Below are positions 6,340 to 62,084 of a DNA stretch of 64,000 nt, piece after piece. This DNA is from Artemia franciscana (lineage: Eukaryota > Arthropoda > Branchiopoda > Anostraca > Artemiidae): assembly GCF_032884065.1 (NCBI RefSeq), contig NC_088864.1:18108409-18172408 (forward strand), read 5' to 3'. The translations under genes and the position numbers were made by a program. Each line of letters begins with the position of its first letter. Position 1 is the stretch's first letter. The notes under the pieces were generated by a model, which saw nothing but the letters and a program-made list of their open reading frames with translations, was not told the origin of the DNA and did not search any database.

Positions 6340-8283
6340 ATTAAATAAAAAAAACAAGTTTTTTCAACTGAAAGTAAGGAGTGACATCAAAAGTTAAAAC
6401 GCACAGAAATTACTTCGTATATGAAAGAGGCTGCTTCCTCATCAACGCCCCGCTCTTTACGCTAAAGTTTGACTCTTTCTCTCAATTCTTCTTTCTAAAA
6501 CAGTAAAAAACTTTAGCGTAAAGAGCGGGGCGTTCATGAGGAAGCAGCCTCTTTCATATACGAAGTAATTTTTGTGCGTTTTAAGTTTTGATGTCACTCC
6601 TTACTTTCAGTTGAAAAAACTTGTTTTTTTTATTTAATTTCTGAACGTTTTTGAATCAATGCATGTTTTGATTTTGGCTCTCCGCAGAGGAATAATCAAA
6701 ACGAAATTTGTATATTTTTTTTTTGGCTCAATGGCTTTCTCATAACTTTGATCGAATGATTTTGAGAAAAAAAGAGCGGGGGACGAAGCCTAGTTGCCCC
6801 CCGATTTTTTGGTTAATTAAAAAGGCATCTAGAACTTTTAATTATTTACGAATCTTTTTATTGGTAAAAGATTTACGTAACTTATAAATTAGCTTACGTA
6901 AAGAACTTTTGTATTCTCATGTTTTTATTACATATATGAGGGGATTCGCCCCATCGTCAGTACCTCGCTCTTTACACTAAAGCTTAAATTTTATCCCAAT
7001 TCATTAAGAATGACCCCCTGAATCACAAAAGCCGTAGAATAAGCAGTTGAAATTACCGAAAATACTTTAGCGTAAAGAGCGAGGTATTAGAAGGAGGTGA
7101 GCCCCTCATATGGGTAATAATTTCTGTTTGTTTTAAGTTTTATTGCTGTTCCTTACTTCCAGCTGAAAAAGCTTTTTCACTTTTATTTTTTAATTGTTTT
7201 TTTTTAAATAATGCTAGTAAATCCTGCTCTCCCTTCATGGAAATTTTCTTCTCCCATTACAAATTCTCGAAGGAAAGTTCCCCCAGCATATCCCCCTCTT
7301 CTCAATCCCTCCCTCAAACCAAAAAAATCCTCCTGAAAACGCCTGTATACTTCCCAATAACCATTACTATATGTAAGCACAGGTCAGAGTTTGTAACTTG
7401 TTGCCCCTCCCACGGGGACTGTGGGGGAGTAAGTCGTCCTCAAAGACATAGTTATAAGGTTTTTCGACTACGTTGAATAAAATGGCTATCTCAGAATTTT
7501 GATCCGTTGACTTTGGGAAAATAATTAATATATTCTCTGAGGCCAACCTGACTTTCATACATAATGATGATAGAAGGTAATAAGCTTACCTAAGCTATGG
7601 ATGTCAGGTGACTGATTTTTCTTCTAACGATAATTTCGACAGGACCTGTGCCTGTCATCATCAGTCCTGTCGAAATTATCGTTAGAAGAAAAATCAGTCA
7701 CCTGACATCCATAGCTTAGGTAAGCTTATTACCTTCTATCATCATTAGGAAAATAATTAGCGTTGGAGGGGGCCTAGGTGCCCTCCAATTTTTTCGGTCA
7801 CTTAAAAAGGGCACTAGAACTTTTCATTTCCGTTAGAATGAGCCCTCTTGCAATATTCTAGGACAACTGGGTCGATACGATCACCCCTGGGAAAAAAAAA
7901 ACAACAAATAAACAAATAAACACGCATCCGTGATCTGCCTTCTGGCAAAAAATGCAAAATTCCACATTTTTGTAGATAGGAGCTCGAAACTTCTACAATA
8001 GGGTTCTATGATACGCTGAATCTGATGGTGTGATTTTCGTTAAGATTCTATGACTTTTAGGGGGCGTTTCCCCCTATTTTCTAAAATAACGCAAATTTTC
8101 TCAGGCTCGTAACTTTTTATGGGTAAGACTAAACTTGATGAAACTCATATATTTAAAACCAGCATTAAAATACGATTCTTTTGATGTAGCCATTGGTATC
8201 AAAATTCCATTTTTTAGAGTTTTGGTTACTATTGAGCCGGGTCGCTCCTTACTACAGTTCGTTACCACGAACTGTTTGATAAA
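6340..8283 (-). repeat. Full-length modular unit, right arm of the giant inverted repeat
   Basis: This is a reverse-complement copy of 3719-5448: H (6340-6642), C, B, then A ending CGAACTGTTTGAT at about 8283. The arm is longer than the left one only because a 220 bp fold-back is inserted at 7528-7747. Confidence 0.9.
7528..7747. mobile_element. Fold-back insertion with 12 bp target-site duplication
   Basis: Target duplication GGAAAATAATTA at 7516-7527 and 7748-7759. Other copies of the host repeat (around 4240 and 21870) keep a single uninterrupted copy of this site. The structure is a 34 bp tail (7528-7561), then a perfect inverted repeat with 83 bp arms (7562-7644 and 7665-7747) around a 20 bp loop. 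The minus strand from 7664 reads CTGATGAT, then stem GACAGG / CCTGTC around a 7 nt loop, then GAAA. Confidence 0.9.
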
Positions 8284-8320
8284 CCAAGGATATTATATGT
8301 CTTCGGCTTGTGGTTGGTAT

Positions 8321-8590
8321 TAAATAAAAAAAGAAGTATTTCTAACTATAAGTAAGGAACAACATTAAAACTTAAAACGAACAGAAATTACTACGTATAC
8401 GAGGGGGTTGCCCCCTTCTCCGTAAGTCACTCTTTGCGCAAATATTTGACTTTTGATTCCAGTTATTTAAGAATGCCTCCTGTCACACAAGGATTACACA
8501 CAAGGTTTAATTAGAATAATACGCTTTTCTTTACAAATTCACAAACACTTTAGCGTAAAGAGCAAGGTACTGTGGAGGGGGCAACTCCTT
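8321..8590 (+). repeat. Module B fragment at the start of a head-to-tail array
   Basis: Starts ATTAAATAAAAAAAGAAG, then AACTATAAGTAAGGAACAAC, and runs up to the next module A. Confidence 0.75.
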
Positions 8591-8593
8591 CAA

Positions 8594-9795
8594 ACAGTTC
8601 GTGGTAACGAACGGTAAGTAAGGAGTGACCTGGCTCAATAGAAACCGAAACTCTAGAAAATGGTTTTTAAAAACGGATTTTGATACCAATAAATATATTA
8701 AAAGAATCATATTTTTTATGCCGATTTCAAATATATAAATATCATTAAGTTTAGTCTTACCCATCAAAGACTACGAGCATGAGAAGATTTTTCCTGATTT
8801 TTGGAAAAAGGGGAAAACACCCCTTATAATTCAAGTGATCTTAATGAAAATAACACCGTCAGTTTCAGCGTAACGGAGAACCATACCGAGTAGGTTTGAA
8901 GCTCCTATCTGCAAAAATATGGAATTTTGTATTTTTGCCAGAAGAAAGATCACGGATGCGTGTTTATTTATTTGTTTTTTTCCCAGGGGTGATCGTATCG
9001 ATCCAGTGGTCCTAAAATATCGGAAAAGTTCTCATTTGGACGGAAATTAAAAGTTCTATTGCCCTTTTTAATTGACCAAAAAATTGGAGGGCAACTAGGC
9101 CACCTCCCCTCCTCATTTTTCCCAGAATTGTCCGAACAGAATTTTGAGATTGCCATTTAGTTCATAGTTGAAAGGCCCAATTGCAATACCTTTGTGTTTA
9201 ACCTGACCTCCCCCCCCACAGCCCGAAAGGTCTTTAAGTTATAAAATTTGCGTATTGTGTAAGCATAGTATTTGTTATTGGGATGCATGCATACATTTTC
9301 GGGTGGGGGAGGGACAAATTTTCTGCTGGGGGTTTTGCCACGGGGGAGTTTTCCATGGGGAGGGGGATCCCAAGGAGTGAATTTGTCAGGGGAAATTATA
9401 CACTGCAGGAATCTGCCAGAAATCTTAAACAAAATCCTTTTTATATGTCTTGCTTTCTCTTTTCCGCCTCAATTTTACGCGCGGAGTTGTTAAGAGTAAT
9501 TGTCCGGGCTAAATTTTTACCGGGATTGAATTGTCTAGAGGATATTTCTAAGGTGAATGGTTTCTCCGTGGAGATGAGGCCAGATTTCCTGGCATTATTT
9601 AAAAAAACCAGACATTACATAAAAACAAGTTTTTTCAACTGAAAGTAAGTAGCAACATCAAAACTTAAAACGAGCGTAAATTATTACGTATAATATGTAG
9701 GGGTTGCCCTCTCTTCAACATCCGCTCTTTATGCTAATTTTTTTATTTTGTCCCAGTTCTTTAAGAATAACTCCCGAAACACAATGATCGTTAAA
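8594..9795 (+). repeat. Modular unit: A plus truncated B
   Basis: Module A starts TTCAAACAGTTCGTGG and contains the conserved GGGGTGATCGTATCGA block near 8985. B begins at about 9627 and breaks off where the next unit starts. The overlapping frames at 9157-9642 are shadows of G-rich repeat sequence. Confidence 0.8.
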
Positions 9796-9797
9796 TC

Positions 9798-11427
9798 AAA
9801 CAGTTCGTGATAACGAACTGTAGTAAGGAGCGAGACGGCCCAATAGTAACCAAAACTCTAAAAAATGGAATTTTGATACCAATAAATACTTCAAAAGAAT
9901 TAAATTTTTATGCTGATTTTAAAAATATGAATTTCATTAAATTTAGTCTCGAGCATCAAAATTTGCCTTATTTTGGAAAAAAATGGGAAACACCCTCTAA
10001 AAGTCATGAATCTGTATGAAAATCACACCATCGTATTCAGCGTTAAGTTCATTAAGTTTAGTCTTACCCATTAAATGTTACGAGCCTAAGAAAATTTGCT
10101 TTATTTTGTAAAAAAAAGGAAAAACACCCCCTAAAAGTCAATCACACCATCATATTCAGCGTATCAGAGAACCCTACTACAGAGGGTTCAAGCTCCTATC
10201 TGAAAAAATGTGAAATTTTGTGTTTTTTTGCCAGAGGAAAGATCACGGGTGCATGTTCATTTGTTGTTGTTTTTTTTTCTCCAGGGGTGATCGTATCGAC
10301 CCAGTGGTCCTATGATGTCACGAGAAGCCCCATTCTAATAAAATTAAAAGTTTTAGTGGCCGTTTTAAGCGACCAAAGAACTGTACGGCAACTATGCCCA
10401 CTCCCACGCTAATTTTTTCCAAATTAACCGGATCAAAATTTTCAGATAATCATTTTGTTCAGCATAGTCGAAAAGTTTATTAACTATGTCTTTCAGAACA
10501 AATTATTTCCCCACAGTCCCCGGGGGAAGGGCTGCAAGTTATGAACTTTTTTCATTATTTACATACAGTATGGGTTATTGGGAAGTATACAGACGTTTTC
10601 AGAGGGGGATTTTTTCAGGTGGGAAGGGTTGGGGGAAGGGGGTTATGTTGGCGGATCTTTCCATGGAGAGATTTATAATGAGGGAAGAGAATTTGTATGA
10701 AGGGGGCACTGGATTCTCCAGGATTATTTAAAAAAAAACAATGAGAAATTAAATAAAAAAACAAGTTTTTCAACTGAAAGTAAAGAGGAACCTTAAAATC
10801 TGAATTTTTGAATTTTGAGGGGACGAAACTCCTTCATGTACATAATAAAAATATACGAATATAGAACTTCGTTACGTAAGTTAATTTGTAAGTTATGTAT
10901 ATGTATTACTAATAAGAACGTTTGTAAGTAAAATTGAAAAAGTTCTAGTGACCTTTTTAGGTAACCAAAAATTTGGAGGGCAACTAGGCTCCCTCCCCAC
11001 CTATTTTCTCAAAATCTTCCAATTCAAACTTTCAGAAAGCCATTTAGCGAAAAAAGGTAAACTTAATATGCAAATTTTGTTTTAAATATTCGTGTACGGT
11101 GAGCCAAAATCAAAACTTGCATTACATCAAAAATGTTCAGAAATTAAATAACAAAAAAAAACAAATTTTTATACTGAAAGTAAGGAGCTACATTAAAATT
11201 TAAAACGAACAGAAATTATTCCGTCTATGAAAGGGGCTGTCACCTCCTCAACGCCCCACTCTTTACGCTAAAGTTTGACTCTTTCTCAAAACTCTGATTT
11301 TTAAAACAGTAAAAACTTAAGCGTAAAGAGCAGGACGTTAGGGAGGGGACAGTCCCTTTCATATACGGACTAATTTCTGTTCGTTTTAAGTCTTAATGTT
11401 GCTCCCTACTTTCAGTTAAAAAAACTT
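9798..11427 (+). repeat. Modular unit: A, reduced B, C, H
   Basis: A starts ATCAAACAGTTCGTGATAAC. B is reduced to its edge, with the module-boundary motif at about 10772. C follows, and H is 11143-11427. The H loop here is inverted relative to the unit's orientation. Confidence 0.8.
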
Positions 11428-11431: not shown

Positions 11432-13060
11432 TCAAACAGTTCGTGGTAACAAACTGTAGTAAGGAGCGACCCGGCTCAATAGTTAACGAAACTCTAAAAA
11501 AAACGGAATTTTGATCCTAAAATATACATCAAAAGAATCGGATTTTCATGCTGATTTTAAATATATAAGTTTCATCAATTTTAGTCTTTGTAATCAAAAG
11601 CTACGAGCCTGAGAAAATTTGCTTTATTTTGGAAAATTTCGTATTTTTTACCAGAAGACAAATCATGGGTGCGTGTTTATTTTATTTTTTTTTTCTTCCC
11701 AGGGGTCATCGTATCGACCAAGTGGTCCTAGAATGTCGCAAGTGGGCTCATTCTAACGGAAATGAAAAGTTCTAGTGCCCTTTTTAATTGACCAAAAAAA
11801 TAGGAGGGCACCTAGGCTCCCTCCCACGCTCATTTTTTCTCCAAAGTCAACGGATAAAAATTTTGAGATAGCCATTTTGTTCCGCATAGTGGAAAACCAT
11901 AATAACTATGTCTTTGGGAATGACTTACTCCCCCACAGTCCCTGGGGGAGGGGCTGCAAGTTACAAACTTTGACCAGTGTTTACATATATCAATCGTTAT
12001 TGGGAAGTGTAGAGACGTTTTCAGGGGGATTTTTTTGGTTTTGGGGGTGGGGCTGAGGAGAGGGGGCTATATGGGTAAATTTTTCCTTCGAGAAATATGT
12101 CAAGGGGGAAGAGAAATTCAATGAAAAGGGTTCAGGATTTTCTAAAACTACTATAAAAAAAATGAAATAATAAGCATGAAATTTTTTTTTCAATTAAGGA
12201 GAAAGTAAGGAGTAGCATTGAAGCTTAAAACGAACAGATATTATTACGCATATGAGGGGCTCTAAATATACTTTAGCATAAATAGCGAGGTATTTAGGAG
12301 GAGATAAATATCTCGCTTTTTATGCTAAAGTATTTTTAGTAATTTCAACTATTTACACTACGGCCTTTCTGATTCAGGGGTCATTCTTAAAGAATTGAGA
12401 CAAAACTTACGATTTAGTGTAAAGAGCGAGGCATTAACGAAGGTAAAAACCCCCCTTATATACATAATAAAAATATAAGAATATAAAAGTTTGTTACGTA
12501 AGTTAATTCTTAACTTACGTATATTTTTTACTAATAGAAACGTTAGTTAAAAATTAAAAGCTATAGTTGCCTTTTTATGTAACCGAAAATCTGAGGGCAA
12601 CTAGGCCTCCTTCCCCACCCCTTATTTCTCAAATTCATCTGATCAAAACTAAGAGAAAGCCATTTAGCCAAAAAAGGAATTAATATGCAAATTTCATTTT
12701 AATAATCTGTTAATCTGATTCAATACAAAAAAAATCAATAAGATTGGACAAGTCCTATGGTGGAGAGCCAAAATCAAACATGCATTAATTCAAAAACGTT
12801 CATAAATTAAATGAAAAAACTAGTTTTTTTAACTGTAAGTAAGGAGCGACATTAAAACTTAAAACGAACAGAAATTACTCCGTATATGAAATGGGTTGTC
12901 TCCTCTTCAACGCCTCGCTCTTTACGCTAAAGCTTTTAATTGTTTTAAAAAGTAGAATTGTGGCAAAGAGTCAAACTTTAGCGTAAAGAGCGAGGCGTTG
13001 AAGAGGGGACAACCCAGTTCATATACGGAGTAATTTCTGTTCGTTTTAAGTTTTGGGTAT
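11432..13060 (+). repeat. Modular unit: A, B, C, H
   Basis: Begins five bases after the previous unit's H, with TTCAAACAGTTCGTGGTAAC. B spans about 12190-12470, C about 12480-12805 and H 12806-13060. A complete head-to-tail neighbour of the preceding unit. Confidence 0.85.
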
Positions 13061-15017: not shown

Positions 15018-16727
15018 GAATAAAAAAAAAAACAAGTTTTTTAACTGCAAGTAAGGAGCGACATTAAAACTTAAAATGAACATAAATTATTCCATATATA
15101 AAAGGGGTTGTCCCCTCCTCAACGCCTCGCTCTTTATGCTAAAGTTTCTTATTGTTTTAAAAAGTAGAACTGTGACAAAGAGTCAAACTTTAGCGTAAAG
15201 AGCGAGGTGTAGAGGAGGAGACAACCCCTTTCATATACGGAATAATGTCTGCTTTTTTTAAGTTCTAATGTTGCTCCTTACTTGCAGTTTAAAAAAAACT
15301 TGTTTTTTATTTAATTTCTGAATGTTTTCGAATTAATGCATATTTTGATTTTGGCTCACCGCACATGAATAATTAAAAAGAAATTTGCATATTATTTTTT
15401 TTGGCTAAATGGCTTTCTCATAGTTTTGATCGGATGATTTTGATAAGAAAAAGGGGCGGGTGAGGAGGCCTTGTTGCCCTCCAATTTTTGGTTACTTAAA
15501 GTGCAACTAGAACTTTTTGGTTTTTTTTACAAACGTTTTTATTAGTAATAAATATATGTTACTTATGAATTAACTTACGTAACGAACTTCAATGTTTGTA
15601 TGTTCTTATTACGTATATGAGGGGGTTCGCCCCTCGTCAATACCTCGCTCTTTACATTAAATCTTGAATTTTGTCCTGATTCCTTAAGAATGACCCCTGA
15701 ATCACAAAGGCCGTAGAATAAATAGTTGAAATTACTAAAAATACTTTAGCGTAAAGAGCAAGGTATTGTGGAGGAAACGAAACCCCTTATATCCGTCATA
15801 TTTTCTCTTCGTTTTAAGTTTCATTGCTGCCCTTTATTTCCAGCTGAAAACTTTTTTAATTTATTTTTCATTGTTTTTTTTTTAATAATGCTAGAAAGTC
15901 CTGCGCCCCCTTCACAAAACTTCTTTTCCCTCTTGACAAATTCATCCATGAAAAGATCCTTCGATGTAATCCCCTCCCCTCCACCCATCACCACCCCGAC
16001 ACGAAAAAGTCCCCCCAAAAACGTCTGTACACTTCCTAATAGCCATTACTATATGTAACCAATGGTCAAAGTTTGTAACTTGCAGTCCCTTCCCTGGGGA
16101 CTGTGGGGGAGTAAGTCGTCCCCAAAGGCATAGTAATTGGAGTTTTCAACCATGCTGAACAAAATGGCTATCTCAAAATTTTGATCCGGTGAGTTTGGGA
16201 ATAAAAGAGCGTGGGAGGGGGCATAGGTGCCCTCCAATTTTTTGGGTCACATAGAAAGGGCACTAGAACTGTTAATTTTAATTAGAATGAGCCCTCTTGG
16301 GACATTCTAGGTCCTCTGGGTCGATATGATCACCCCTGGGGGAAAAAACGAAAGAAAAAAAAACAAATAAACAGGCATCCGTTATCTGTCTTCTGGCAAA
16401 AAATACAAAATTCCGCATTTTTGTAGATAGGAGCTTAAAACTTCTGCAATAGGGCTCTCTGATACGTTGAATCAGATCATGTGATTTTCTTTAAGATCGT
16501 ATGACTTTTAGGGGTTGTTTCCCCCTATTTTCTAAAATAAGGCAAATTTTTTCAGGCTCATAACTTTTGATGGGTAAGGCTAAACTTGATGAAACTTATA
16601 TATTTAAAATAAGTATTAAATTGCAATTCTTTTGAAGGAACTGTTGGTATCAAAATTCCGTTTGAGTTTCGGTTACTATTGAGCTGGGTCGCTCTTGACT
16701 ACAGTTCGTTACCACGAAATGGTTGAC
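15018..16727 (-). repeat. Full-length modular unit: H, C, B, A reading left to right
   Basis: H is 15018-15322, C about 15323-15620, B about 15620-15850, and A ends with CGTTACCACGAAATGGTTGA at 16727. The H loop orientation is inverted relative to the unit. Confidence 0.85.
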
Positions 16728-20699: not shown

Positions 20700-22395
20700 A
20701 TTAAATAAAATCAAGTTTTTTTTTTAACGGAAAGAAAGGAGCGATAATAAAACTTAAAACGAACAGAAATTACTTCGTATATGAAAGGGAATGCTTCCTC
20801 ATCAACGCCCCGCTCTTTACGCTAAATTTTGACTCTTTCTCTTAACTCTAATTTTTAAAACAGTAAAAAACTTTAGCGTAAAGAGCGGGGCTTTGATGAG
20901 GAAGTATCCCCTTTCATATACGAAGTAATTTCTGTTTGTTTTAAGTTTTAGTGTTCCTCCTTACTTTCCGTTAAATTTTTTTTTTTTTTTTAATTTCTGA
21001 ACGTTTTTGAACCAATGCATGTTTTGATTTTGGCTCTCCGCAGAAGAATAATTAAAACCAAATTTGCATATTTATTTTTTTTGCTAAATGGCTTTCTCAT
21101 AGTTTTGATCGAATGATGTTGAGAAAAAAAGGAGCGGGGGAGGAGGCCTAGTTGCCTCCCGATTTTATGGTTACTTAAAAAGGCAACTAGAACTTTAAAA
21201 TTTTTTACGAATCTTTTTATTAGTAAAAGATATACGTAACTAACAAATTAGCTTACGTAACGAACTTCTGTATTCTCATGTTTTTATTACGTATATGAAG
21301 GGGTTCACCCCCCTCGTCAGTACCTCGCTTTTTACACTAAAGCTTAAATTTTATCCCAATTTCTTAAGAATGACCCCTGAATCACAAAAGCCGTAGAATA
21401 AATAGCTGAAATTACTAAAAATACTTTAGCGTAAAGAGTGAGGTATTAGGAGGAGATGAGCCCATCATGTGCGTAATAATTTCTGTTCATTTTAAGTCTT
21501 AATGCTTCTCCTTACTTTCAGTTGAAAAAACTTCTTCATATTTATTTTTCATTGTTTTTTTAAATAATGCTAGAAAATCCTGCGCTCCCTTCATGAACAT
21601 TTTCTTCCCCCATGACAAATTCCTCCAAAGAAAGTTCCCCCAGCATATCCTCCTCTTCTTAACCCCCCCCCCCCACAACCTTAAAATCCCCCTGAAAACG
21701 TCTTTACACTTCCAAATAACCATTACTATATGTAAGCACTGGTCAAAGTTTGTAACTTTTGGCCCCTCCCACGGGGACTGTGGGGGAGTAAATCGTCCTT
21801 AAAGACATAGTTATAAGGTTTTTTGACTACGCTGAATAAAATGGCTATCTCAGAATTTTGATCTGGTGACTTTGGGAAAATAATTAGCGTGGGAGGGGGC
21901 CTAGGTGCCCTCCAATTTTGTGGCCACTTAAAAGGCACTAGAAATTTTCATTTCCGTTAGAATGAGCCCTCTCGCAAGATTCTAGGAACACTGGGTCGAT
22001 ACGATCACCCGTGGAAAAAAAAAAATAATAAACACGCATCCGTAATATGCCTTCTTGCAAAAAATACAAAATTCCACATTTTTGTAGATAGGAGCTTGAA
22101 ACTTCTACAATAGGTTTCTGTGATACGCTGAATCTGATGATGTGATTTTCGTTAAGATTCTATTACTTTTAGGGTCTGTTTCCCCCTATTTTCCAAAATA
22201 AGGCAAATTTTTTTCAGGCTCGTAACTTTTGAATGGGTAAGATTAAACTTGATTAAACTTATATATTTAAAATCAGCACTAAAATGCAATTCTTTTAATA
22301 TAGCTATTGATATCAAACTTCCATGTTCTAGAGTTTTGGTTACTGTTGAGCCGGGTCGCTCCTTACTATAGTTCGTTACCACGAACTGTTTGAAA
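20700..22395 (-). repeat. Full-length modular unit: H, C, B, A
   Basis: H is 20700-20995, C about 20996-21290, B about 21290-21545, and A ends with CGTTACCACGAACTGTTTGA at 22394. It carries an uninterrupted TTTGGGAAAATAATTAGCG at about 21873, the empty-site equivalent of the fold-back insertion at 7528. Confidence 0.9.
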
Positions 22396-23787: not shown

Positions 23788-24660
23788 AAGGTTCGGTTTT
23801 CAGATTATCTTGTATGTCATGGACTAAATTTCAGAGAAGAAAAGAAAACAAATAGTTTTTTTCAGTTTTAGACCCTACCATCCTTTCTTAAATAGTTTAT
23901 TCCACCCCAGAAGCCGAATAATGATAATTCTCTTGCTCTTAGTTCTAGCCCCAAGAGATTTCCCAAAAAATGTGATCAAGACATTTTTAGTTTAATTTTC
24001 TGACAATTTTTGAAGCTAGAAAAAGAGATGCAAGACCGTTTGAAGGAAAGACAAAGAATTTTGTTAGTATAAAAGATTATTGTAAATGTCTCATCATATT
24101 CTTTGAATTATAACGAAATTATAAAAAAAAATTTTATACTCTTCTTAATAATTAAAATATACTCTGCTAAGACAAAATTATTTCTACTTCTAATCATATG
24201 CACTTTTTTTTTATCAAATATTATTTTGTCTTGACACGAGATGACAATGGAATTATAAAAAAAATATAATCTTCTTCATAATTAGAATATAAAGTATAAT
24301 ATAAGAGATTGTTGTAAATGTCTTCATCATATTCTTTGAATTATAACGAAATTATAAACAAAATTTGTTGTGCTCTTCTTAATAACTAAAATATACTCTG
24401 CTAAGACAAAATCATTTCTGCTAATAATCATATGTACCTGCTTTATTTTTCTATCAAATATTACTTTATATTGACACTAGCTGACTTTGTAAGCGACTAA
24501 CCTCATTCAGGTTTGCTTGATTTTCATTCTGTTGACAATTTCTTTCATTCCATTCACAATTTGAAGATTAGCTCTGCCAATATAGCAATAGGATTAGTTT
24601 TCAAATTATCTTGTCTGACACAAATTGAATTTCAGAGAAGAAAAAAGAAAAAAAACTTGA
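23788..24660 (+). repeat. Tandem duplication, diverged copies
   Basis: The stretch TTCTTTGAATTATAACGAAA followed by TTATA occurs at about 24099 and 24339. ATATACTCTGCTAAGACAAAAT occurs in both flanks, at about 24157 and 24391. The sequence TTTCAGAGAAGAAAA recurs at about 23829 and 24630. This indicates an old duplication of about 240 bp. Confidence 0.65.
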
Positions 24661-25866
24661 GAATCGCCTCTTGAACTTTTCATCAGTAAAGATGAAAAGA
24701 CACACTTTGATCTAATATGAAATGGGAGTGACATTCCCCCCAAAATGATTTGCAGAGGTTCGCTTTGAAGCTATTATGTTTTCCACAATTTTATTTCCGT
24801 GTTTCTCTACGTGGAAACACTTTTTCAGTCCGTTGCCGACAAAAGTCTTGTTTCCTTGGGTATATTCATTTCCTAAAAATATTCTTGATTTACGTTCAAA
24901 TATTGAATTTAAGTAAAATTCTTGTTCAATATTATTTTGTCTGAATTTTTAACATGGCTCTTTACTATTCTTCCTGTAAGTTTTTGTTCAGAAAATGTTT
25001 CCTTTCATTAATATCTGTTCATTTCTCAATTGACGTCTTCTACTAAGGTTATTTATAAAGGTATTTACAGGAATACTGTGGTTATTTATAGGGATATTCG
25101 AAGGTTTTTTCTTTTTTTTTGCTTTAGAACTTATATATTGGATTGTAAATTTGAATTTTAGGCAAAACTTAAATATCCGGTCAGAAAATTCGATCAACCG
25201 CTTCCTGGCATTATATTTCAGTAACATCTTTAACTATTAAATTCAGGGGAGATGTAGAGGGGGATTTCAAACGTTACAGATTGAAAATCTACACAATTTT
25301 TTCTTCTTGTATGGGTCTCATACCGCCTTGACACCCATCCTGTGGAAGTTGTTAATAATAGACGTATCTTAATCCACTCTATAATTAGTAAGGGAATGAT
25401 TGTCTTAGAAATTTAAGAAGTAGCTAATTTAAAAGCAATTGAGGTGTTTCAAAAATATAAATGACAAAAACAAAATAATCGATTGTAGCTAGTAATCAGA
25501 ATCTTGGGAAAAAGACTAGTTATTAGAAAAATGGACAAAATCTAACAGTCAAATGTTTGGTAATCAAACTGGTATGTCTAAAAAACCTTCCATGTGCATC
25601 TTCTGCTCTTTGGCTCCTTCAATTAGGGCTATACAACCCACTTTTCACTATCCTAATGTTCCATAATTTTTATCACACTTTTATTGACTTTCAAGACTTA
25701 ATATTTTAGCTGATATCTGTAATTTTCTTTAACTTGGCTCCACTGATTTCCTTAAAATACTAAAAAATATTTTGCGCGGTAAGTGATTATCAACCCTGCC
25801 TGAACATCAGTGATTGAGGAAAGTTGTAGTAACTGGTAAATATACCCAAATGCACTTCCGCTTTCA
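24661..25866. other. Non-coding stretch
   Basis: AT-rich. The open frames 24750-24944 and 24988-25227 lack any recognisable motif. No repeat module is seen. Confidence 0.5.
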
Positions 25867-27258
25867 TCAAACAATTCGTGGTAAGGAACTGTAGTAAGGA
25901 GTGACCCGGCTCAATAGTAACCAAAACTCTAAAAAATGGAATTTTGATATCAATAGTTACATCAAAACAATCGCATTTTAATGCTGATTTTAAATATATA
26001 AGCTTAATCAAGTTTAGTCTTACCCGTCAAAAGTTACGAAAGATTCAGCGTATCAGAAAATTTGCCTTATTTTAGAAAAGGGGAAACAACCCCTAAAAGT
26101 CAAAGAATCGTAACGAAAATCACACAATGATTTTCAGCGTATCAGAGAACCCCATTGTAGAAGTTTCAAGCTTCTATCTACAAAAATGTGGAATTTTGTA
26201 TTTTTTGCCAGAAGGCAGATCACGGTTGGTGTTTATTTGTTTGTTTTTTTTTTGTTTTTTTTTCCCAGGGGTGATCGTATCGACCCAGTAGTCCTAGAAC
26301 CTTGCGAGAGGGCTCATTCTAATGGAAATGAAAAGTCCTAGTGCCCTTTTAAGTGACCAGAAAAATTGGAGGACGCCTAGGCCCCCTCCCACGCTAATTA
26401 TTTTCCCAAAGTCACCAAACCAAAATTCTGAGATAGCCATTTTATTCAGCGTAGTCAAAAAACTTACAACTATGTCTTTGGGGACGACTTACTCCCCCAA
26501 AGTCCCCGTGGGAGGGGCCACAAGTTACAAACTTTGACCAGTGCTTACATATAGTGATGGTTATTTGGAAGTGTACAGACGTTTTCAGGAGATTTTTAGG
26601 CTGTGGGGGGGAGTTGATAAGAGGGGGATATGTTGGGGGAACTTTCCATGGAGGAATTTTTCATGGGGAAAAAAAATTTCATGAAAGAAGCGCAGGATTT
26701 TCCAGCATTATTAAAAAAAAAAACAGTGAAAGAATAAATATGAAAAAGTTTTTCCACAAGTTCTAGTTGCCTTTTAAGTAACCAAAAAATCGGACGGCAA
26801 CTAGGCCTCCTCCGCCACTCCTTTTTCTCAAAATTGTTCGATCAAAACTATGAGAAAGCCATTTCGCCAAAAAAATAAATATGCAAATTTTGGTTTTAAT
26901 TATTCATCTGCGGAGAGCCAAAATCAAAACATGCATTGATTCAAAAATGTTCAAAAATTAAATTTAAAAATACACATTTTTTAACGAAAAGTAAGGAGCG
27001 ACATTAAAACTTAAAAGGAACAGAAATTACTTCGTATGAGAAAGGGGCTGCTTCCTCATCAACGCCCCGCTCTTTACGCTAAAGTTTTTTACTGTTTTAA
27101 AAAGTAGAGTTAAGAGAAAGAGTCAAACTTTAGCATAAAGAGCGGGGCGTTGATGAGTAAGCAGCCCCTTTCACATACGAAGTAGTTTCTGTTTGTTTTA
27201 AGTTTTAATGTCGCTCCTTGCTTTTCGTTAAAAAAATTAGTTTTTTTATTTAATTATT
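25867..27258 (+). repeat. Modular unit lacking B: A joined directly to C, then H
   Basis: A starts ATCAAACAATTCGTGG. Near 26755 the A end runs straight into AGTTCTAGTTGCC of C, so B is deleted. H is 26956-27258. Confidence 0.85.
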
Positions 27259-28394: not shown

Positions 28395-30590
28395 ATACAA
28401 CTCTTGAATATAAATTTAAAGTAATATATGACACAATTTGCATTCTAACTAAAATGAAATTTATTTCAAAAAATATTAAGTCTTTTAATATTAGTAATAA
28501 GTATAACAGATTATGTTTATCTATTAATTTTACTTATAAGCAGATTGAAGATATTAATTTACCAGAAATTTTAAATCAGCGAGAGGTGAAACAGCCCTTC
28601 CTAGTAATTTGAATTATAATGACAGTCCAGTTTTAACTTATAAGTCTTCAAAAACTATTGGGAAAATAAATTTTAATTATAACTTAATACTTAAAAGATT
28701 GGACAGTGATATAAATTGGAATCCTGTTTGTAATTGTAAGCAACTAGGTCCATTTGTAAATCCCACTTAACAACATGTTATAACAGGGGACTTATGGACT
28801 TCGTGGATTAGGAAACCAGTAGCTAACTGTCGTGATTAGCATGAGAGGGATTTTTCAAAGGATTATTGTTTAACCAAAAAGGGATTTTTAGGGATTTTTC
28901 GTCTCTGATTCGGGATTTTTCAGAAAAGAAAGTGGAAACACTGAACTAGGTCCATTTGTAAATCCCACTTAACAACATGTTATAACAGGGGACTTATAAA
29001 TAATAAAACATGAAGATCTTCAATATGAATAAAGGGTCTAAATTCTGTCTTTCCCATCATTTGAAACCATCAAGTATTCTTGGTAGCTGGGAGAGTGATT
29101 TTGATCTATTTAATTGATAAGTGGTGCAAGAAAGAGAATAAAAATAAAGAGGGTTTTCAAAGTTGGAAGAATTTAGTTATTAGTAGAATACGAAATAAAA
29201 TATATGCTAACTTAAAAAACAGTAACATTAAATCATAATTTTATAATGCTAGGATAAAACAAGCAATTGCTAATCAACAGAATGAATTTGTAATTGTACC
29301 GGTTGATAAAGCTAATAACAATTTTGCCATAATTTGTCAGAAGTTGTATTATGATGTCTTAAAAGGGAGTTATGTACGACCAATGTCTATGAAAAGGTGA
29401 AGTTAGAGGATGAAAATTTCATTGAAAAAACAGAAGAAATATTGTTTAAAAAATTTAGTATTAAAATTAATGATAATGATAAAAAGTTCCCTTTTCTATA
29501 TTGGACTGTAAAATTTCATAAGAATCCCCCTAAACCACAGCTTATTGCTGGAGCAGCTAGATATCCAACTCAAATTGCTGCTACTGATCTCTCTTTAATT
29601 TTAAGGGAAGTCATAAATAAATTTAAAACCTATAGTTTTGGTATTAAAAAAATTCGAACTTTAATCCATACTGGAGTGTTAATAATTTCACTGCAGGTGA
29701 CAGACTCTTTAAAAATGGTTTCGGCTAAAAGAATTGAGTCTTTTGATTTTGCGAAAATGTATACTAATCTATCACTTAACGTAGTCTTAGAAAATTTAAA
29801 AACGATTTTTAAGAAATCGTTCCTCTTATCTAGTAAGAGACTCTTAAAAATAGACAAATAATAGAAAAGCCAGATGGATAAACTGCTTTAACACTACAAT
29901 TAGTTTTAGATGTTTTTTGATATGATTTTAGATTTTTTGATATGATGTTTTTGAGATATTATTTTTGACTTATTAGAATTTGCTTTATATAATACTTATA
30001 TGAGATTTAATGGTAATTTATATTGGAAAATTGTGGGAATTCCCATAGGGGGGAATGCTAGCCCATTTATAGCTGACTTTATTTTTAAGTCAACTAGAAT
30101 GTAGATTTATAATAAATAAGAATAATCCAAATAATTTAATCATGCTTCGTCAAATAATAAAAGATATTTAGATGATATTATGGTTAAAATTGTAAGGAAT
30201 TTATTGATATTTCTAAAAATATTTATCCATCAGAGCTAACCCTTGAGCCTAGTCATGGCACAGGTCAAGAAGATCATTTTTTAGATTTGAATATTAATAT
30301 TTCCGATAATAATAAATTAGGCTTCACGATGTATAATAAAACTGATGATTTTCATTTTGAAGTGATTAATTTTCCGTTCCCTGAAGGTAACATACACTCA
30401 AATATCACATATTCAGCATTTTGCTCACAATTACTTAGATATACAAGTATTTGTAGTAGTTATATTGATTTTAAAAATAGATGTAAAATTTTAAGCCAAA
30501 AATTATTTTAAACGGTTTTTCTGTAAATAAATTAACTCAGCAATTTAAAAAATTAAGTTTTTATTAAAATGAAGTTTTAAGTAAATACCA
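28395..30590 (+). mobile_element. Decayed Penelope-like retroelement, reverse transcriptase region
   Basis: Fragments in several frames line up as one reverse transcriptase. In order they are: KGSKFCLSHHLKPS (about 29033); FVIVPVDKANNNFAIICQK (about 29287); the longest open piece, 29397-29861, with FPFLYWTVKFHKNPPKPQ and FDFAKMYTNLSLNVV; YWKIVGIPIGGNASPFIAD (about 30020); the catalytic YLDDI (about 30168); and DHFLDLNINIS followed by DDFHFEVINFPFPEGNIHSN. The order (fingers, LY[WT]xxKxHK, FD[FS]xxxYTN, GIPIGxNxxP, YxDD, FLDL) matches Penelope-like elements. Frameshifts and stops show it is dead. I saw no convincing GIY-YIG endonuclease downstream. A related non-LTR class cannot be excluded without a search. 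Confidence 0.7.
28742..28997 (+). repeat. 54 bp direct duplication bracketing a 148 bp insert within the Penelope-like relic
   Basis: The same 54 bp (starting AACTAGGTCCATTTG and ending GGGGACTTAT) occurs at 28742-28795 and 28944-28997, apparently without a difference. The 148 bp between them have no counterpart in the reverse transcriptase frame. The frame resumes after the second copy. Confidence 0.85.
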
Positions 30591-39375: not shown

Positions 39376-40960
39376 TCAAACAGTTTGTGGTAACGAACTG
39401 TAAGGAAGGATCGACCAGGCTCAATAGCAACCGAAACTCTAAAAACGGAATTTTGCTACCAATATATACATCAAAACAATCGGATTTTGCGCTGAATTCA
39501 AATATATATGTCTCATCAAGTTTAGTTTTATCCATCAAAAGCTAAGAGCCTGAGAAAATATGCCCTGTTTTCAAAAAAAAGGAAAGACCCCCTAAAAGTA
39601 TCTAGAACCCTGCAGAAGAAGTTTCAAGCTCTTATCTGAAAAAGTGTGGAATTTTTTATTTTTTGCCAGAAGAAAGATCGATGTGTGTTTATTTTTTTTT
39701 TCTTCTAGGGGTGATTGTATCGATCCGGTGGCCCTAGACTATTGTGAGAGGGCCCATCTAAAAGAAAATTAAAAGTTTTATCTCCCTTTAAAGTGAACAA
39801 AAAATTGGAGGGCAACTATCCCCCTCCCCTACCCCTTTGTCCCCAAAATTGTCTGATTAAAATTTCGAAATACCTATTTTGTCCATCATAGTTGAAAGGC
39901 CCAATAACTGAGCCCTAGATATGCTATGATCCCCACACAGCCCCAGGAAAAACGTCGTCAATTGTAAAAATTGCTCATTGTTTAAGCATAGTATTTGTTA
40001 TTAGGAAGCATGCATACATTTTAGGGTGGGAAGACGAATTTTCTGCTGGGATTTTTTCACGAGGGAACTTCAATGGAGAGGGAAGTTTCCAGGGGGTGAA
40101 CTTGTCAGAGGAAATTAAACACTAGCGGAACTTGCCAAAATTCCTATGAAAAATTATTTTTATATTTCTTGCTTTCTCTTTTCTGTCTCAATTTCACACG
40201 TGAAGTTGTTAAGTATAATTACCCTGGGTAAATTTTCATCTGACCAATAAAATTGGAGGGAAAATAAGCCCCCTTCCACACTCATTTTTTCCCAAAGTCA
40301 CCCGATCAAAATTTTAAGATAGCCTTGTCGAAAATCTAATAACTAATGTCTTTGAAGATGACTTAATCCCCCACAATCTGCGAGGGAAGGGCTGCAAATT
40401 ATGAACTTTGTCCATCGTTTACGTACAGTATTGGTTATTGGAAATTATAAAGACGTTTTCAGGAGGGATTTTTTCTGGTAAGGGGTTGGGGATGGTTGGA
40501 TATAAGGGATTGCATGGAAGGATATTTCAATGAAGGAAATTTTCATGGGGGAAGGGACATTTCCATGAATGGGGTGCCGGATGCCCCTATATTATTTAAA
40601 AAACAATCAGAAATTAAATAAAAAACAAGTTTTTTCAACTCAAAGTAAGGAGCAACATTACAACTTAAAACAAACTGAAATTATTACGTATATCAGGGGG
40701 ATCGGCCCCTTCTATACTTCACTCTTTACGCTAAAGTTTTTTTAGAACGTTCAAAAGAGCTACTTATTCTAATTAAACGACCTTTGTCATTCAGGGGTCA
40801 TTCTTAAAGAATTGGAACCAAATTCGAACTTAAGCGTAAAGAGCGAAGTATTGACTAGGGGGAGAACCATCTCATATACGTAACAATTTCTGTTCGTTTT
40901 AAGTTTTAGTGCTACTCCTTACTTTTAGTTGAAAAAACTTGTTGTTTTTGTTTAATCCAT
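39376..40960 (+). repeat. Modular unit: chimeric A followed by B
   Basis: A begins TCAAACAGTTTGTGGTAACG. At about 40235 it restarts in the middle of a second A subfamily (ACCAATAAAATTGGAGGG), giving a partly duplicated A. B runs about 40630-40960 with the boundary motif CTCAAAGTAAGGAGCAAC. Confidence 0.8.
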
Positions 40961-45705: not shown

Positions 45706-46266
45706 CAAAGAGTTCGTGGTAACGAACTGTAGTAAGGGCTAATAAAAATAAAAACTAATAAAAATTAAAAGTTTTAGTTGCCTTTTAAATAAGCAAAAAT
45801 TGGAGGGTAACTAGGCCTACTCCCTCACTCCTTTTTTCTCAAAATCGTCCGATCAAAACTATGAGAAAGCCATTTAGCCATAACAATAATTTAATATGCT
45901 AATTTCGTTTTAATTATTCGTGTGCGGAGAGCCAAAATCAAAACATGCATTAATTCAAAAACGTTCAGAAATTAAATAGAAAAAAGTTTTTTTTAACTGA
46001 AAGTAAGGAGCGATATTAAAACTTAATACGAACAGAAATTACTCCGTATATGAAAGGGGCTGTCCCCTCCTCAACGCCCCGCTCTTTACGCTAAAGATTT
46101 TTACTGTTTTAAAAAGTAGAGTTGAGAGAAAGAGTCAAACTGTAGTGTAAAAAGCGGGGTGCTGAAGAGGGAACATCACTTTTCATATAGGGAGTAATTT
46201 CTGTTCGTTTTAAGTTTTAATATCGCTCCTTACTTTCAGTTAAAAAAACTGGTTTTTTTTATTTAA
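45706..46266 (+). repeat. Modular unit: 30 bp A end fused to C and H
   Basis: Only TCAAAGAGTTCGTGGTAACG and a few following bases of A remain (45706-45738). C follows directly, then H (45970-46266). Confidence 0.8.
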
Positions 46267-57847: not shown

Positions 57848-57897
57848 TCTATATATATAAAAATAAGTTGTCTGTGTGTGTGTGTGTGTGTGTCGAG

Positions 57898-57998: not shown

Positions 57999-58018
57999 TG
58001 TTTGTCAACTGATGAAAT

Positions 58019-58232
58019 TACATACCGGGACACAAATGACGACCGGGACACAGGGAATATAAATGACAAAAATTACAGACCGGGACACCGGGACACAAAT
58101 GACGACCGGGACAGAGGGAATATAAATGACGACCGGGACACTCAAAGAGAAATTACAAACTGGGACACCGGGACACAAATGACGACCGGGACACAGGGAA
58201 TATAAATGACGACCGGGACACAGGGACACGTC
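58019..58232 (+). repeat. GACCGGGACAC minisatellite inside the Helitron
   Basis: A compound tandem array of ACCGGGACACAAATGACG and ACAGGGAATATAAATGAC units recurs at irregular spacing. Cys/Pro-rich open frames on the minus strand here are products of this repetition and not genes. Confidence 0.85.
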
Positions 58233-58249
58233 ATTAGAATAATGAGGTA

Positions 58250-58388
58250 TAGATCTGAATACGGATTGTTTTCCCATGGACAATTATATGTTGCATGTTC
58301 AAGAGTCAGTAAACCTGACAATCTATTTATATGCACAGACAATGGGACAGCGAAGAATGTTGTATATTCGCATGTTTTACGTAGCTAA
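58250..58388 (+). pseudogene. Helitron helicase C-terminal fragment
   Basis: The frame reads YGLFSHGQLYVACSRVSKPD and continues NLFICTDNGTAKNVV, ending YSHVLRS and a stop. FSHGQLYVACSRV is the Pif1-type helicase motif VI region found at the C-terminus of Helitron Rep-helicase proteins. Everything upstream in that frame is minisatellite, so only this tail of the protein survives. Confidence 0.85.
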
Positions 58389-58389
58389 A

Positions 58390-58392
<3 letters not shown>

Positions 58393-58430
<38 letters not shown>
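58393..58430. repeat. (AT)n microsatellite in the Helitron
   Basis: About 19 uninterrupted AT units lie just after the helicase relic's stop codon. Confidence 0.95.
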
Positions 58431-58432
<2 letters not shown>

Positions 58433-58589
58433 ATTCACAGGTGGGACACAGGGACACAACTACAATGGCGCGTAACTAATATGGCGCGTAACGACTTACG
58501 CGCGCGGGGGGCTTGGGGGGGGGCGCGAAGCGCCCCACCAACTAGGTGTTGGGGTGGCGCGAAGCCCCACCCCAACAGCTAGTAATAAA

Positions 58590-59130
58590 AATATACAGAC
58601 CCATTAATAGCTCACTGCAGCCCGATGCTGCCTGGGGCCAACACAGCTGTGTAGACTCCTCCTCTATCGCAATATGTTCAAAACTTCCCTCTTTACATCC
58701 TCCCAAGAAGCTTTGAATCCTTTGAATCCTTTCTTATGACCTCTTCCTACTCCCGTCGGGCATGTCATGATTTTTTTTTAGCCCTAGATGTATGGCCGAA
58801 AAGGAAGTTCTTTGACGATTTGTCATCCTTCATTAGCAAAACGTGTCCTAGCCATTTCATCAATTCTCGCATTATAGTATTAGAACATAGATGGAATCAC
58901 ATTTTTCGTACAGCTTGTGGTGAGTCCGAAACAATCAGTAGACAATTTCTCTAGAAAACATCTTGCGCATCCTCCTTTTTTCTTTCGGAGAGTCCATGTT
59001 TCTGAACCATACTTAATCGCTGTCATCCCTGTAGTTTCCAAAACTCTGATCTTGGTTCACAGATTTATCTTCCTATTCTTTCGAACTTTTTTCAGCTCTG
59101 ACAAAAAAACATCCTGGCATCGCGTATTTA
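58590..59130 (-). mobile_element. LINE 3' end (RTE/BovB-like C-terminal domain), decayed
   Basis: Minus-strand frames read KIRVLETTGMTAIKYGSETW then TLRKK (about 59060-58976). Next comes a DVFQRN-like segment, then RELMKWLGHVLLMKDDKSSK and NFLFGHTSRAKKK (58871-58770). It ends near WEDVKREVLN and a Cys-Ser-Glu-Leu tail at about 58610. YGSETWTLRKK and LGHVLLM-DD are the usual C-terminal domain of RTE/BovB-type LINE reverse transcriptases. Stops and frameshifts mark it as dead. Its 3' end is within about 10 bp of the Helitron 3' terminus. Confidence 0.75.
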
Positions 59131-60529
59131 TTTTCACTTTAATACTCACTATATATACATTTATTGTCATTAACTAATAATTGTCATACGTTCTCCTCTC
59201 TCTACACCATTATTGATAATTGTCCAGTTAACCATAAAGAAACATAGAATGATATATCAGAGCATTTTATTAGCCCCTCCCACACAAATATGGTTTCGTC
59301 TATAGTTTCTATATGTTTTTGAATAATTGGCTGCAAATTATTCTTCGTTTTGTATTTTCTTTTAGTTTGCCCCTTTACTCTCTGACCTGCTCTGCATTCT
59401 CCAAAATAACTCCTAACTACATGCCAGTACTTATAATCCCTCCATCTGTGCTTAATGCATATTTTATCACACGCTTTTCGGTTTTGGCAGTAAAGATGGA
59501 ATATACGTAGACTTCTGCATATACATAATTTTATGCTTGGGAATATTATATCTAAAAAGTTTTGACAACATCTTCTTTTACCCTTCAATACAACTAAAAC
59601 TATTACCATGCATTATTAACTGACAGAGTTCCCTTCTCACGGTATAAATATTAATTGGTACTCAATTGTTATAGTACTTATTTTAGCAGCTAAAACGTTG
59701 AATTGATTACTTTATCTCTTTTATGGGGGTCTTATTTAGCATTGCCAAACACAGCACAATGTTACTGTTTTTGGTACAGTTTAGAGGTCCTGGTACAATG
59801 CGGTACATTTGGGAATGTTTTGGTAGAATCAAATTTTTCGGTACATTTTGATTATAATTATTCCTTTCTGACTTGGATATCAGCTCAAGTTTTACTTTAT
59901 CGAAAATTTTCTTTTCGCTGCGGCAAACTTTTAACCTGCTGGTCAGATGGCACAAATCAATCTCTTCAGTCAGAAAACTGGCACAGTTCATTACAAAATA
60001 TTTTATATAAGTGTTCTAAAGGGTTCTATACAGGAAAAACCATAATTATTTGGTAACACGAGAAAGAAAGATGCTTTTTTAAATTGAACCCAGGTGCCTG
60101 AATTAAGAACTCCATAATTTCGGATTGTATTTCGTTTGGTGTTCAAATTAGAAAGCGCATAGTAAAGAGCGAGGACAATCTCAGAACGACGATAAGCAAA
60201 TTTAGAAACTATGAAGAGCAAGAAAATGAATGGTGAATAAATTCTGATTCCAAGCATAAAACCTAAATAAAAACTTAGCACGGTTTTATTAAATGAAGCG
60301 GAATTCGCTTTATTATATTCTGATAATCTACTGACAACTTCTTGAATAAATGTTAGAGTTTGATAATAACTATACTAGTGCACTCAGCGTATCAAGAAGC
60401 ACTGTGTTCAACTTCTCAAAATGCTCAGCGCTCAGTGCTCGATTCTCAGTTCTCAGCTCCAGTAATTGAACTAAAATTCTGGATGACTTTCAGTCTTTCA
60501 GTTTATTAAATACAAAATCAAGTTTATTA
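59131..60529. other. Non-coding stretch with one long unassigned frame
   Basis: The minus frame 59202-59609 (135 codons, Cys-, Arg- and Lys-rich; KACDKICIKHRWRDYKYW) is the only notable frame. It follows the LINE on the same strand but does not match that LINE's upstream protein as I know it. Function unknown. Confidence 0.3.
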
Positions 60530-62084
60530 AACTGACAGCAAGGAACAACATTAAAATTAAAACGAACAGAAATTATTGCGTATATGAAGGGGGTGGCCCC
60601 CTCCTCAACACCTCACTCTTTATGCTAAAATTATTTAGTACTTCAAAAAAAAGCGTCTTACTCTGCTAATTAAACGGCCCCTGTTTTTCAGGAGTCAGGC
60701 TTACAGAATTGGGACAAAACTCAAATTTTAGAGTAAGAGCGATGTGTTGAGGAGGCAGCAACCCCCTTCGTATATGTAATATTTCTGTTCGGTTTAAATT
60801 TTAATGTTGATAACTTCGAAGACCACACTACCTTTCCATGACGAAAGTAAAATAGTTCAAAATAGGGATGATACCTTTTTATTGACAGTGAATTGATATA
60901 AAATTATTTAACTGGATATTTCGAGCACATATACAGTGTTCATCATCAGCAGTAAAACTGATACTGCTGATGATGAACACTGTATATGTGCTCGAAATAT
61001 CCAGTTAAATAATTGTATATCTATTCACTGTCAATAAAAAGATATCATCCCTATTTTGAATTGTTTTACTTTAATTTTAATGTTGCTCCTTACTTTCAGT
61101 TGAAAAAAACTTGCTTTTCTTATTTAATTTCTGATCGTTTCTTAAATAATGCCTGGAAATCTGGAGCCCCTGCACAGAGAAACTCCTCCCCACGGGAAAA
61201 TCCTCTAGACAATTCAATCCTGGTGAAATTTTCTTAACAACTCTGCGCGTAAAATTGAGACGGAAAAGAGAAAGCAAGACATATAGAAAGGATTTTGTGT
61301 AAGAATTCTGGCAAATCCTCCCAGTGTATAATTTCCCCTGACATCTTCACTCCCTGGAAACTTCCAATCCCATGGGAAATTCCCCCGTGGAGAATACCCA
61401 CCTGAAAATGTATGTATACATTCCAATAGCAAATACTATGTGTAAGCAACTGGCAAATCTTATAAATTACAGACCTTTCCCCTGGGGTTGGGGGGGGGGT
61501 CATGCTATACCCAAAGGCATAGTTATTTGGCCTTTCAACTACGATGAACAAAATTGCTATCTTAAAATTTTGATCCGATGATTTTGGGAAAAAATTTGAG
61601 GAGGTCTAGTTGCCCTCAATTTTTTTGGTCACTCAAAAAGGGTACTAGAAATTTTAATTTCCGCTTGAATGAGCCCTCTCCCGATATTCTAGTACCACTG
61701 GGTTGATACAGTCCCCTCTGGAAAAAAAATTAACATGCATCCGTGATCTTTCTTCTGGCAAAAAAACAACAAAATTCCACATTTTTACAAATAGGAGCTT
61801 GAAACCTAGACAGTAGGGTTCTTCGATTCGCTGAATTTGATGGTGTGATGTTAACTACGATCACTTGAGTCTTAGGGGGTGTTTCCTCTTCTTTTGTTTG
61901 TAGCAAATCAGGCAAATGATGGGTAAAACTAAACTTAACCAAATATTTAAATTTGAAATCACCATAAAAAGCCGATTCTTTTGATATATGCATTGGTATC
62001 AAAATTCCGTTTCTTAGAGTTTGGTTACTATTGAGCTGGGTTGCTCCTTACTTATAGTTCAATACCACGAACTGTTTGATTTAC
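60530..62084 (-). repeat. Modular unit: B then A, interrupted by a fold-back
   Basis: B starts at about 60530 (AACTGACAGCAAGGAACAAC). It is split at 60809/61073 by an insertion and resumes GCTCCTTACTTTCAGTTG. A then runs to TACCACGAACTGTTTGAT at about 62082. Confidence 0.85.
60810..61072. mobile_element. Fold-back insertion with 13 bp target-site duplication
   Basis: Target duplication AATTTTAATGTTG at 60797-60809 and 61073-61085; other B copies have it once. A 34 bp tail (60810-60843) precedes two inverted arms of roughly 105-110 bp (from 60844 and ending 61072), with about 9 bp between. Each arm carries CTGATGAT, stem GAACAC / GTGCTC (one mismatch) with loop TGTATAT, then GAAA, one on each strand. 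Confidence 0.9.

What the first reader, a model, noticed from the sequence alone, without database searches (positions are those of the whole stretch)
7528..61072. Two unrelated-sequence fold-backs share one hammerhead-like core and one insertion architecture
Seen: insertions 7528-7747 and 60810-61072 differ in sequence but share the same layout. Each has a 12 or 13 bp target duplication, a one-sided tail of exactly 34 bp, an inverted pair, and the core CTGATGAT + 6 bp stem + 7 nt loop + 6 bp stem + GAAA. Known: CTGATGA...GAAA is the hammerhead ribozyme core. Penelope-like elements carry hammerheads in their pseudo-LTRs, can have them inverted, and can have a short one-sided tail. Inference: these are minimal, coding-free Penelope-derived elements, and the extra T after CTGATGA may mark a variant or inactive ribozyme.
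Basis: partly seen in the sequence, partly recalled or inferred. Interest (0 to 1): 0.78.

Follow-up and report, generated by a model that had tools for sequence, protein, structure and literature searches.

The report
Tiny double-ended Penelope retrotransposon insertions
Two short hairpin-like inserts in a brine shrimp genome are cut-down copies of two related "Penelope" jumping genes, each carrying a hammerhead ribozyme remnant at its centre, and thousands of such cores in the same genome hint at how these unusual elements copy themselves.

Summary
Inserts 7528-7747 and 60810-61072 have exact 12- and 13-bp target duplications, a 34-bp one-sided tail, inverted arms and a CTGATGAT...GAAA core. 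Window repeats supply empty sites. The core occurs 3598 times there, against 3 for the reversed control.

Both inserts are short head-to-head copies of two autonomous Penelope-type families. The tails are the first codons of the RT ORFs and are homologous between families, so they are neither unrelated nor strictly coding-free. Stems I and II of the hammerhead differ between families yet pair, but ins1 lacks one stem I strand, ins2 has a stem II mismatch, and Rfam models stay silent.

Best mechanism: both target strands prime internal reverse transcription at sites about 34 nt apart, and both cDNAs run to an RNA 5' end just upstream of the hammerhead. In family 2, copy number falls from 2132 to 710 across position -10, behind a TATA box. 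Family 1 shows no sharp end. The elements are known in kind; the 5'-end-limited reading is new.

The parts
7516..7527 (.). target duplication of ins1, left copy (GGAAAATAATTA)
   Evidence: occurs once in paralogous empty repeats
7528..7747 (.). ins1: 220-bp head-to-head copy of Penelope family 1
7528..7561 (-). 34-bp tail of ins1 = start of the family 1 ORF (MYESQVGLREY...)
   Evidence: tblastn, 12 of 12 residues at 7562-7527
7562..7664 (-). ins1 sense arm (hammerhead core to inner RT start)
7634..7664 (-). hammerhead core CTGATGAT-stem II-GAAA; stem I 5' strand missing in this copy
7664..7747 (+). ins1 inverted arm without tail; begins at loop II of the core
7748..7759 (.). target duplication of ins1, right copy
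60797..60809 (.). target duplication of ins2, left copy (AATTTTAATGTTG)
60810..61072 (.). ins2: 263-bp head-to-head copy of Penelope family 2
60810..60843 (-). 34-bp tail of ins2 = start of the family 2 ORF (MERQCGLRSY...; this copy has a stop in it)
60844..60954 (-). ins2 sense arm
60919..60949 (-). hammerhead core on the tail-bearing arm, with stem I strands TACTG and CAGTT next to it
60962..61072 (+). ins2 inverted arm without tail
60967..60997 (+). second hammerhead core, on the inverted arm; predicted cleavage after TATC (60998-61001)
   Evidence: cleavage site inferred
61073..61085 (.). target duplication of ins2, right copy

Best explanation
The inserts are micro-insertions made by the machinery of two autonomous Penelope-type retrotransposons. 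Steps: (1) the element is transcribed from its pLTR, in family 2 from a start 10 nt before the hammerhead core; (2) the RNP cuts both target strands 12-13 bp apart; (3) reverse transcription starts inside the RNA, near the ORF start, at two sites about 34 nt apart, one used by each target strand; (4) both cDNAs run only about 115 and 155 nt (family 2) to the RNA 5' end; (5) their 3' ends are joined, giving head-to-head arms with the hammerhead at the centre and the offset as the tail. Shown: family membership, TSDs, tail = ORF start, clustered outer ends, and (family 2 only) the -10 cliff. Inferred: two priming events on a sense RNA, the transcription start, the joining step. The hammerhead sits at the centre because it sits at the RNA 5' end, not because it made the inversion.
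For: Parents: the ORF continues from the tail in L015 (508 aa open in the locus) and, for 93 aa, in L040; RVT_1 E 1.5e-9 (family 1) and 1.8e-7 (family 2), GIY-YIG E 1.5e-4 (22.4 bits against a 22.6 cut-off). The families are homologous: RT stretch 34%, E 3e-33; N-terminus including the tail 33%, E 6e-11. TSD of 8 bp or more in 16 of 19 family 2 and 12 of 14 family 1 head-to-head copies that passed the script's filter, control 0 of 57 and 5 of 42; without three family 1 copies in TA repeats, 9 of 11 and 0 of 33. Inverted arms: outer ends at 99-112 nt from the core in 22 family 2 loci and 101-107 in 16 family 1 loci (whose filter accepted 90-115; exceptions under evidence against); tail-bearing arms at 135-159. 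Family 2 24-mer counts at 0..23, -10..13, -20..3, -34..-11: 2631, 2132, 710, 571; controls 0. 12 of 30 family 2 sense arms stop at -10 and 21 of 30 within -8..-14. TATAAA 33 nt before that point in 7 of 7 longer copies examined. Among the first 100 of 3598 cores, 14 minus/plus pairs 17-68 nt apart and no other neighbours within 300 bp; three of the 14 look like duplicates of others. Beck 2024: both strands cut and extended, internal starts explain the tail.
Against: Family 1 shows no sharp 5' end: 13 of 30 sense arms end between -37 and +1, and 17 extend further, from -118 to at least -1400; its genome-wide upstream counts were not obtained. The loci are the 30 best matches to queries that contain the tail, so tail-bearing copies are over-represented, and some are duplicates of each other (L045/L046). 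Minus-strand matches were seen in 18 family 1 and 26 family 2 loci; six do not fit the 90-115 window: L049 ends at 81, L034 is cut by its contig end, L023 and L062 match only in the pLTR, L041 and L044 have only 20-25 nt matches. Arms share two family markers (7 of 7 copies, 0 of 16 sense arms in each marker's other copies), which fits one template but also fits a hairpin; other minor alleles were discordant (11 discordant cells in all against 13 concordant). No transcript data were available.
Confidence: 0.65

Rival explanations
1. Self-priming: one cDNA folds back at its 3' end and copies itself, making a hairpin that is then inserted (the self-priming model discussed for Adineta vaga Penelope elements).
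For: Head-to-head arms with palindromic fillers at junctions; arms share family markers in 7 of 7 copies for two markers; ins1 arms are identical over 84 bp. Arkhipova 2013 favours self-priming but says it needs an antisense template (passages).
Against: A self-copied arm should run back through the tail or end at random places; instead 38 inverted arms end at 99-112 nt from the core, about 34 nt short of the other arm (six loci outside the filter are listed under the best explanation, one of them, L049, ending at 81). Beck 2024 shows both target strands primed.
Confidence: 0.25
2. Dedicated minimal non-autonomous element: the short form is itself transcribed and copied as a unit (a PLE-driven MITE or retrozyme).
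For: Very many cores and many short copies; a tandem 338-bp hammerhead array exists in the genome (L069).
Against: Junction positions and fillers differ from copy to copy, as for independent products of a longer parent; 9 of 30 family 2 sense arms extend beyond -14 and 17 of 30 family 1 sense arms beyond -37.
Confidence: 0.1
3. DNA foldback/MITE with a chance hammerhead-like sequence.
For: Palindrome plus TSD; Rfam hammerhead models silent at E up to 10.
Against: Parents with RT and GIY-YIG stretches; 3598 cores against 3 in the control; stems I and II paired in both families with different letters.
Confidence: 0.01

Closest known systems
PAc, a Poseidon/Penelope element of Anolis carolinensis (Beck et al. 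2024, PMC11167929; main text section read)
   Same: GIY-YIG plus RT; hammerhead at the pLTR-ORF junction; RT starts internally, 111-118 nt into the ORF, at two adjacent sites that explain a 30-40 bp tail; both target strands cut and extended.
   Different: Here the main ORF starts 102-110 nt downstream of the core, not at stem II; the copies studied are short head-to-head pairs.
Pen families of Adineta vaga (Arkhipova et al. 2013, PMC3846280; passages)
   Same: Inverted head-to-head pLTRs, optional 31-bp tail on one, TSDs of 8-10 bp, first codons inside pLTR and tail.
   Different: There very low copy numbers and mostly with coding bodies; here thousands of cores and body-less inserts.
Metazoan retrozymes with type I hammerheads (PMC7229834, PMC7761336; passages)
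   Same: Small non-autonomous hammerhead repeats, proposed to depend on PLEs.
   Different: Those are tandem repeats; ins1 and ins2 are inverted single insertions. L069 in this genome does look retrozyme-like.

Membership tests
Penelope-like element (GIY-YIG clade), derived copies | RT of the PLE type in the parent | tested here: met
   RVT_1 1.5e-9 (family 1), 1.8e-7 (family 2); assignment to PLE rather than another RT rests on recalled motifs plus the features below
Penelope-like element (GIY-YIG clade), derived copies | GIY-YIG endonuclease in the parent | tested here: inconclusive
   family 1: E 1.5e-4, 22.4 bits, just under Pfam's 22.6; family 2 endonuclease not looked for
Penelope-like element (GIY-YIG clade), derived copies | inverted or tandem pLTRs with 30-40 bp tail and TSD | tested here: met
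Hammerhead ribozyme, minimal type I of PLEs | conserved core CUGAUGA ... GAAA | tested here: met
   one extra U after A9 in both families
Hammerhead ribozyme, minimal type I of PLEs | stems I and II flanking the core, conserved by pairing | tested here: met
   stem II: 91.7% of cells paired in 46 distinct cores against 18-60% in slid registers, the changes being largely between families; stem I: TTAAC/GTTAG in 26 of 29 family 1 loci examined, and 3 or more pairs in 27 of 30 family 2 loci. Energy folding shows stems I and II in family 2 but not this stem I in family 1
Hammerhead ribozyme, minimal type I of PLEs | match to a Rfam hammerhead model | tested here: not met
   no hammerhead family at E up to 10 on either insert; intact parental copies were not scanned
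Hammerhead ribozyme, minimal type I of PLEs | self-cleavage | not testable with these tools
   needs an in vitro assay
Metazoan retrozyme | tandem repeats with hammerhead | tested here: not met
   ins1 and ins2 are inverted single insertions

The most novel reading that the evidence does not exclude
A PLE mRNA carries its own reverse-transcription start about 115-155 nt from its 5' end, so a single transcript can only yield a short 'strong-stop' product primed from both target strands. The many micro-insertions would be the natural footprint of that step. They would show that the classic head-to-head inversion and the tail both come from two offset priming events on a sense RNA, with full-length copies needing tandem transcripts.
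Probability: 0.5. Interest if true: 0.65.

Novelty: new member of a known kind. Interest (0 to 1): 0.5.

Why it matters
How Penelope-like elements integrate is still open: published work offers self-priming on an antisense template (passages of PMC3846280) or internal initiation with both strands extended in vitro (PMC11167929). This genome holds a large natural set of very small products in which both start sites, the inner ends and the junction can be read from each copy. That makes the two models separable by counting, without new chemistry.

Tried and rejected
Rfam at gathering level on the window gave nothing, and at E up to 10 on the two inserts gave no hammerhead; the microRNA hits there are probably what any long hairpin gives. 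A splicing origin of the family 2 5' end was considered (TTTTAG before the core): spliced ends should lie at -8, but 12 of 30 sense arms stop at -10 and 2 at -8. Hammerhead cleavage as the source of the 5' end was rejected: the predicted cut is 35-36 nt downstream of the core start, inside the copies. A second recurrent 5' end at -191 in family 2 proved to be only where the reference L040 itself stops; L041, L044, L066 and L068 share sequence further upstream. Two-template evidence from arm differences in family 2 was discounted, because the sense arms were chosen by similarity to the query. A display slip of mine doubled one base of family 1; the family 1 fold and the alignment used it and are not relied on (corrected). 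The first run of the family 2 analysis failed by a script error and was redone. The canonical CTGATGAG...CGAAAC count and the family 1 upstream counts did not complete. Cervera and De la Pena 2014 and Lunse 2017 are not held; nothing of them was read.
Full report
WHAT IS THERE. Both inserts are as described. Ins1 is 7528-7747 with a 12-bp duplication, ins2 is 60810-61072 with a 13-bp duplication, each with a 34-bp tail on the left only. The core pattern occurs 3 times in the window against a shuffle mean of 0.03. The flanks of ins1 belong to a repeat that is present many times in the window; the joined flanks align through copies at 4392-4102, 21737-22024, 26543-26255, 11979-11689 and others, three of which carry the duplicated 12-mer intact and once, and others a mutated form. 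The joined flanks of ins2 align through the junction in copies such as 40613-40956 and 9796-9429.

HOST. The window is part of a 1.27-Gb genome, contig C2 of 67,337,973 bp. A published A. franciscana assembly lists 1.27 Gb and a longest scaffold of exactly 67,337,973 bp (passages of PMC11492255). Mismatches: C1 here is longer, 71,465,782 bp, and the held genome has 6468 contigs against 6486, so it may be a revised version. The main texts of PMC11492255 and PMC10827361 contain 'Penelope' 0 times.

PARENTS. The sense arm plus tail of ins1 has 742 first-look candidates in the genome, of which 40 were scored; that of ins2 has 416, of which 40 were scored. I read 30 loci of each. In L015 the sequence after the tail of family 1 runs into an ORF open for 508 aa in the locus; in L016 the sequence before the core holds RT and, in another frame, a GIY-YIG stretch. 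L040 shows the family 2 N-terminus (93 aa from the tail ATG to a stop) and, in another frame, an RT with stops. Pfam: RVT_1 for both, GIY-YIG for family 1 slightly under its cut-off. The families are homologous in the RT (34%, E 3e-33) and at the N-terminus including the tail (33%, E 6e-11). The tails therefore are ORF starts: MYESQVGLREY and MERQCGLRSY. The ATG lies 102 nt (family 1) or 110 nt (family 2) after the first C of the core.

HAMMERHEAD. In the families, stem I is directly next to the core and to the predicted cleavage site: TTAAC/GTTAG in 26 of 29 family 1 loci examined; TACTG/CAGTT in 23 of 30 family 2 loci, plus 4 near variants with 3 or 4 pairs. Stem II is GACAGG/CCTGTC and GAACAC/GTGTTC; over 46 distinct cores from the first 100 of 3598 hits, 91.7% of cells pair, against 18-60% with the 3' side slid by 1-3, and the double changes are largely between the families. 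The family 2 leader folds better than its shuffles (z -2.89), with stems I and II in the predicted structure; the family 1 minimum-energy fold has stem II but not this stem I. Between GAAA and the cleavage triplet only 2-3 nt remain, so helix III is absent, as reviews report for PLEs (passages of PMC6155905 and PMC7761336). The extra T after CTGATGA is shared by both families and forms ATGATG, the start of a short upstream ORF here. Ins1 has lost the 5' strand of stem I, and ins2 has an A.C mismatch in stem II, so neither insert is likely to cleave well by itself (inference).

LAYOUT ACROSS COPIES. Among head-to-head copies that passed the script's filter, TSDs of 8 bp or more occur in 16 of 19 (family 2; control 0 of 57) and 12 of 14 (family 1; control 5 of 42, all five in three copies that sit in TA repeats). 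Inverted arms end at 99-112 nt from the core in 22 family 2 loci and 101-107 in 16 family 1 loci (filter 90-115); tail-bearing arms end at 135-159. These match two start sites about 34 nt apart. Loci with minus-strand matches outside the filter: L049 (ends at 81), L023, L034 (cut by the contig end), L041, L044, L062. The sample was chosen by similarity to a query with the tail, so the share of tail-bearing copies is not a free estimate; the position of the other arm's end was not selected for.

FIVE-PRIME END. In family 2, 12 of 30 sense arms stop at -10 and 21 of 30 at -8 to -14. Genome-wide exact 24-mer counts are 2631 at 0..23, 2132 at -10..13, 710 at -20..3 and 571 at -34..-11, with controls of 0. 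The point -10 is the A of TTTTAGTT, with TATAAA 33 nt upstream in 7 of 7 longer copies examined. This looks like a TATA-plus-initiator start (recalled consensus). Family 1 is diffuse: 13 of 30 end between -37 and +1 and 17 extend further. Its core 24-mer counts 224, but the matching upstream counts were not obtained.

MECHANISM. Beck et al. 2024 showed in vitro that a PLE protein cuts and extends both target strands and starts reverse transcription internally at two adjacent sites, which explains the tail (main text section read). Put together with the positions above, one cDNA from the outer site and one from the inner site, both running to the RNA 5' end and then joined, reproduces ins2 in length, orientation, tail and centre; for ins1 one arm stops at the core itself and the other 19 nt further in, so its cDNAs stopped a little short or started from other RNA ends (inference). 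Fillers at junctions fit joining by short homologies (inference). The rival, self-priming, is discussed in PMC3846280 (passages); it does not by itself explain why the second arm stops at the inner start site in nearly all loci with a long inverted arm.

NOVELTY. Penelope elements, inverted pLTRs, tails and their hammerheads are known. I found no paper describing body-less head-to-head PLE insertions limited by the RNA 5' end, in the searches (open-licence library; listings, and the passages cited).

Noticed in passing
L069 (G000:C1:41785200-41787600): Tandem array of about 5 units of 338 bp, each with the hammerhead core, made from the leader and ORF start of family 2 with an internal deletion: a retrozyme-like array born from a Penelope element.
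   Followed up: partly
L010 and L011 (G000:C796, around 24555-24942 and 26325-26712): Direct repeat of the family 1 core-to-tail unit, joined from near the tail end back to the stem I strand, beside an inverted arm.
   Followed up: no
window 29355-29861 and 29961-30116, + strand: ORF with motifs that look like another, older PLE-type RT (recalled); tblastn with the family 1 RT hits the second stretch at E 0.004, Pfam finds nothing in the first.
   Followed up: partly
window 5149-5431, 6339-6639, 12854-13054, 15024-15308, 20723-20975, 26954-27258, 45988-46248: Seven of the 25 longest listed inverted repeats (86 in all) have arms exactly 37 nt apart: a separate foldback family; the flanks of ins2 match these repeats.
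   Followed up: no
window 4243-5063 and 6707-7527: Large inverted repeat, 821 bp at 97%, whose right arm is cut off by ins1.
   Followed up: partly
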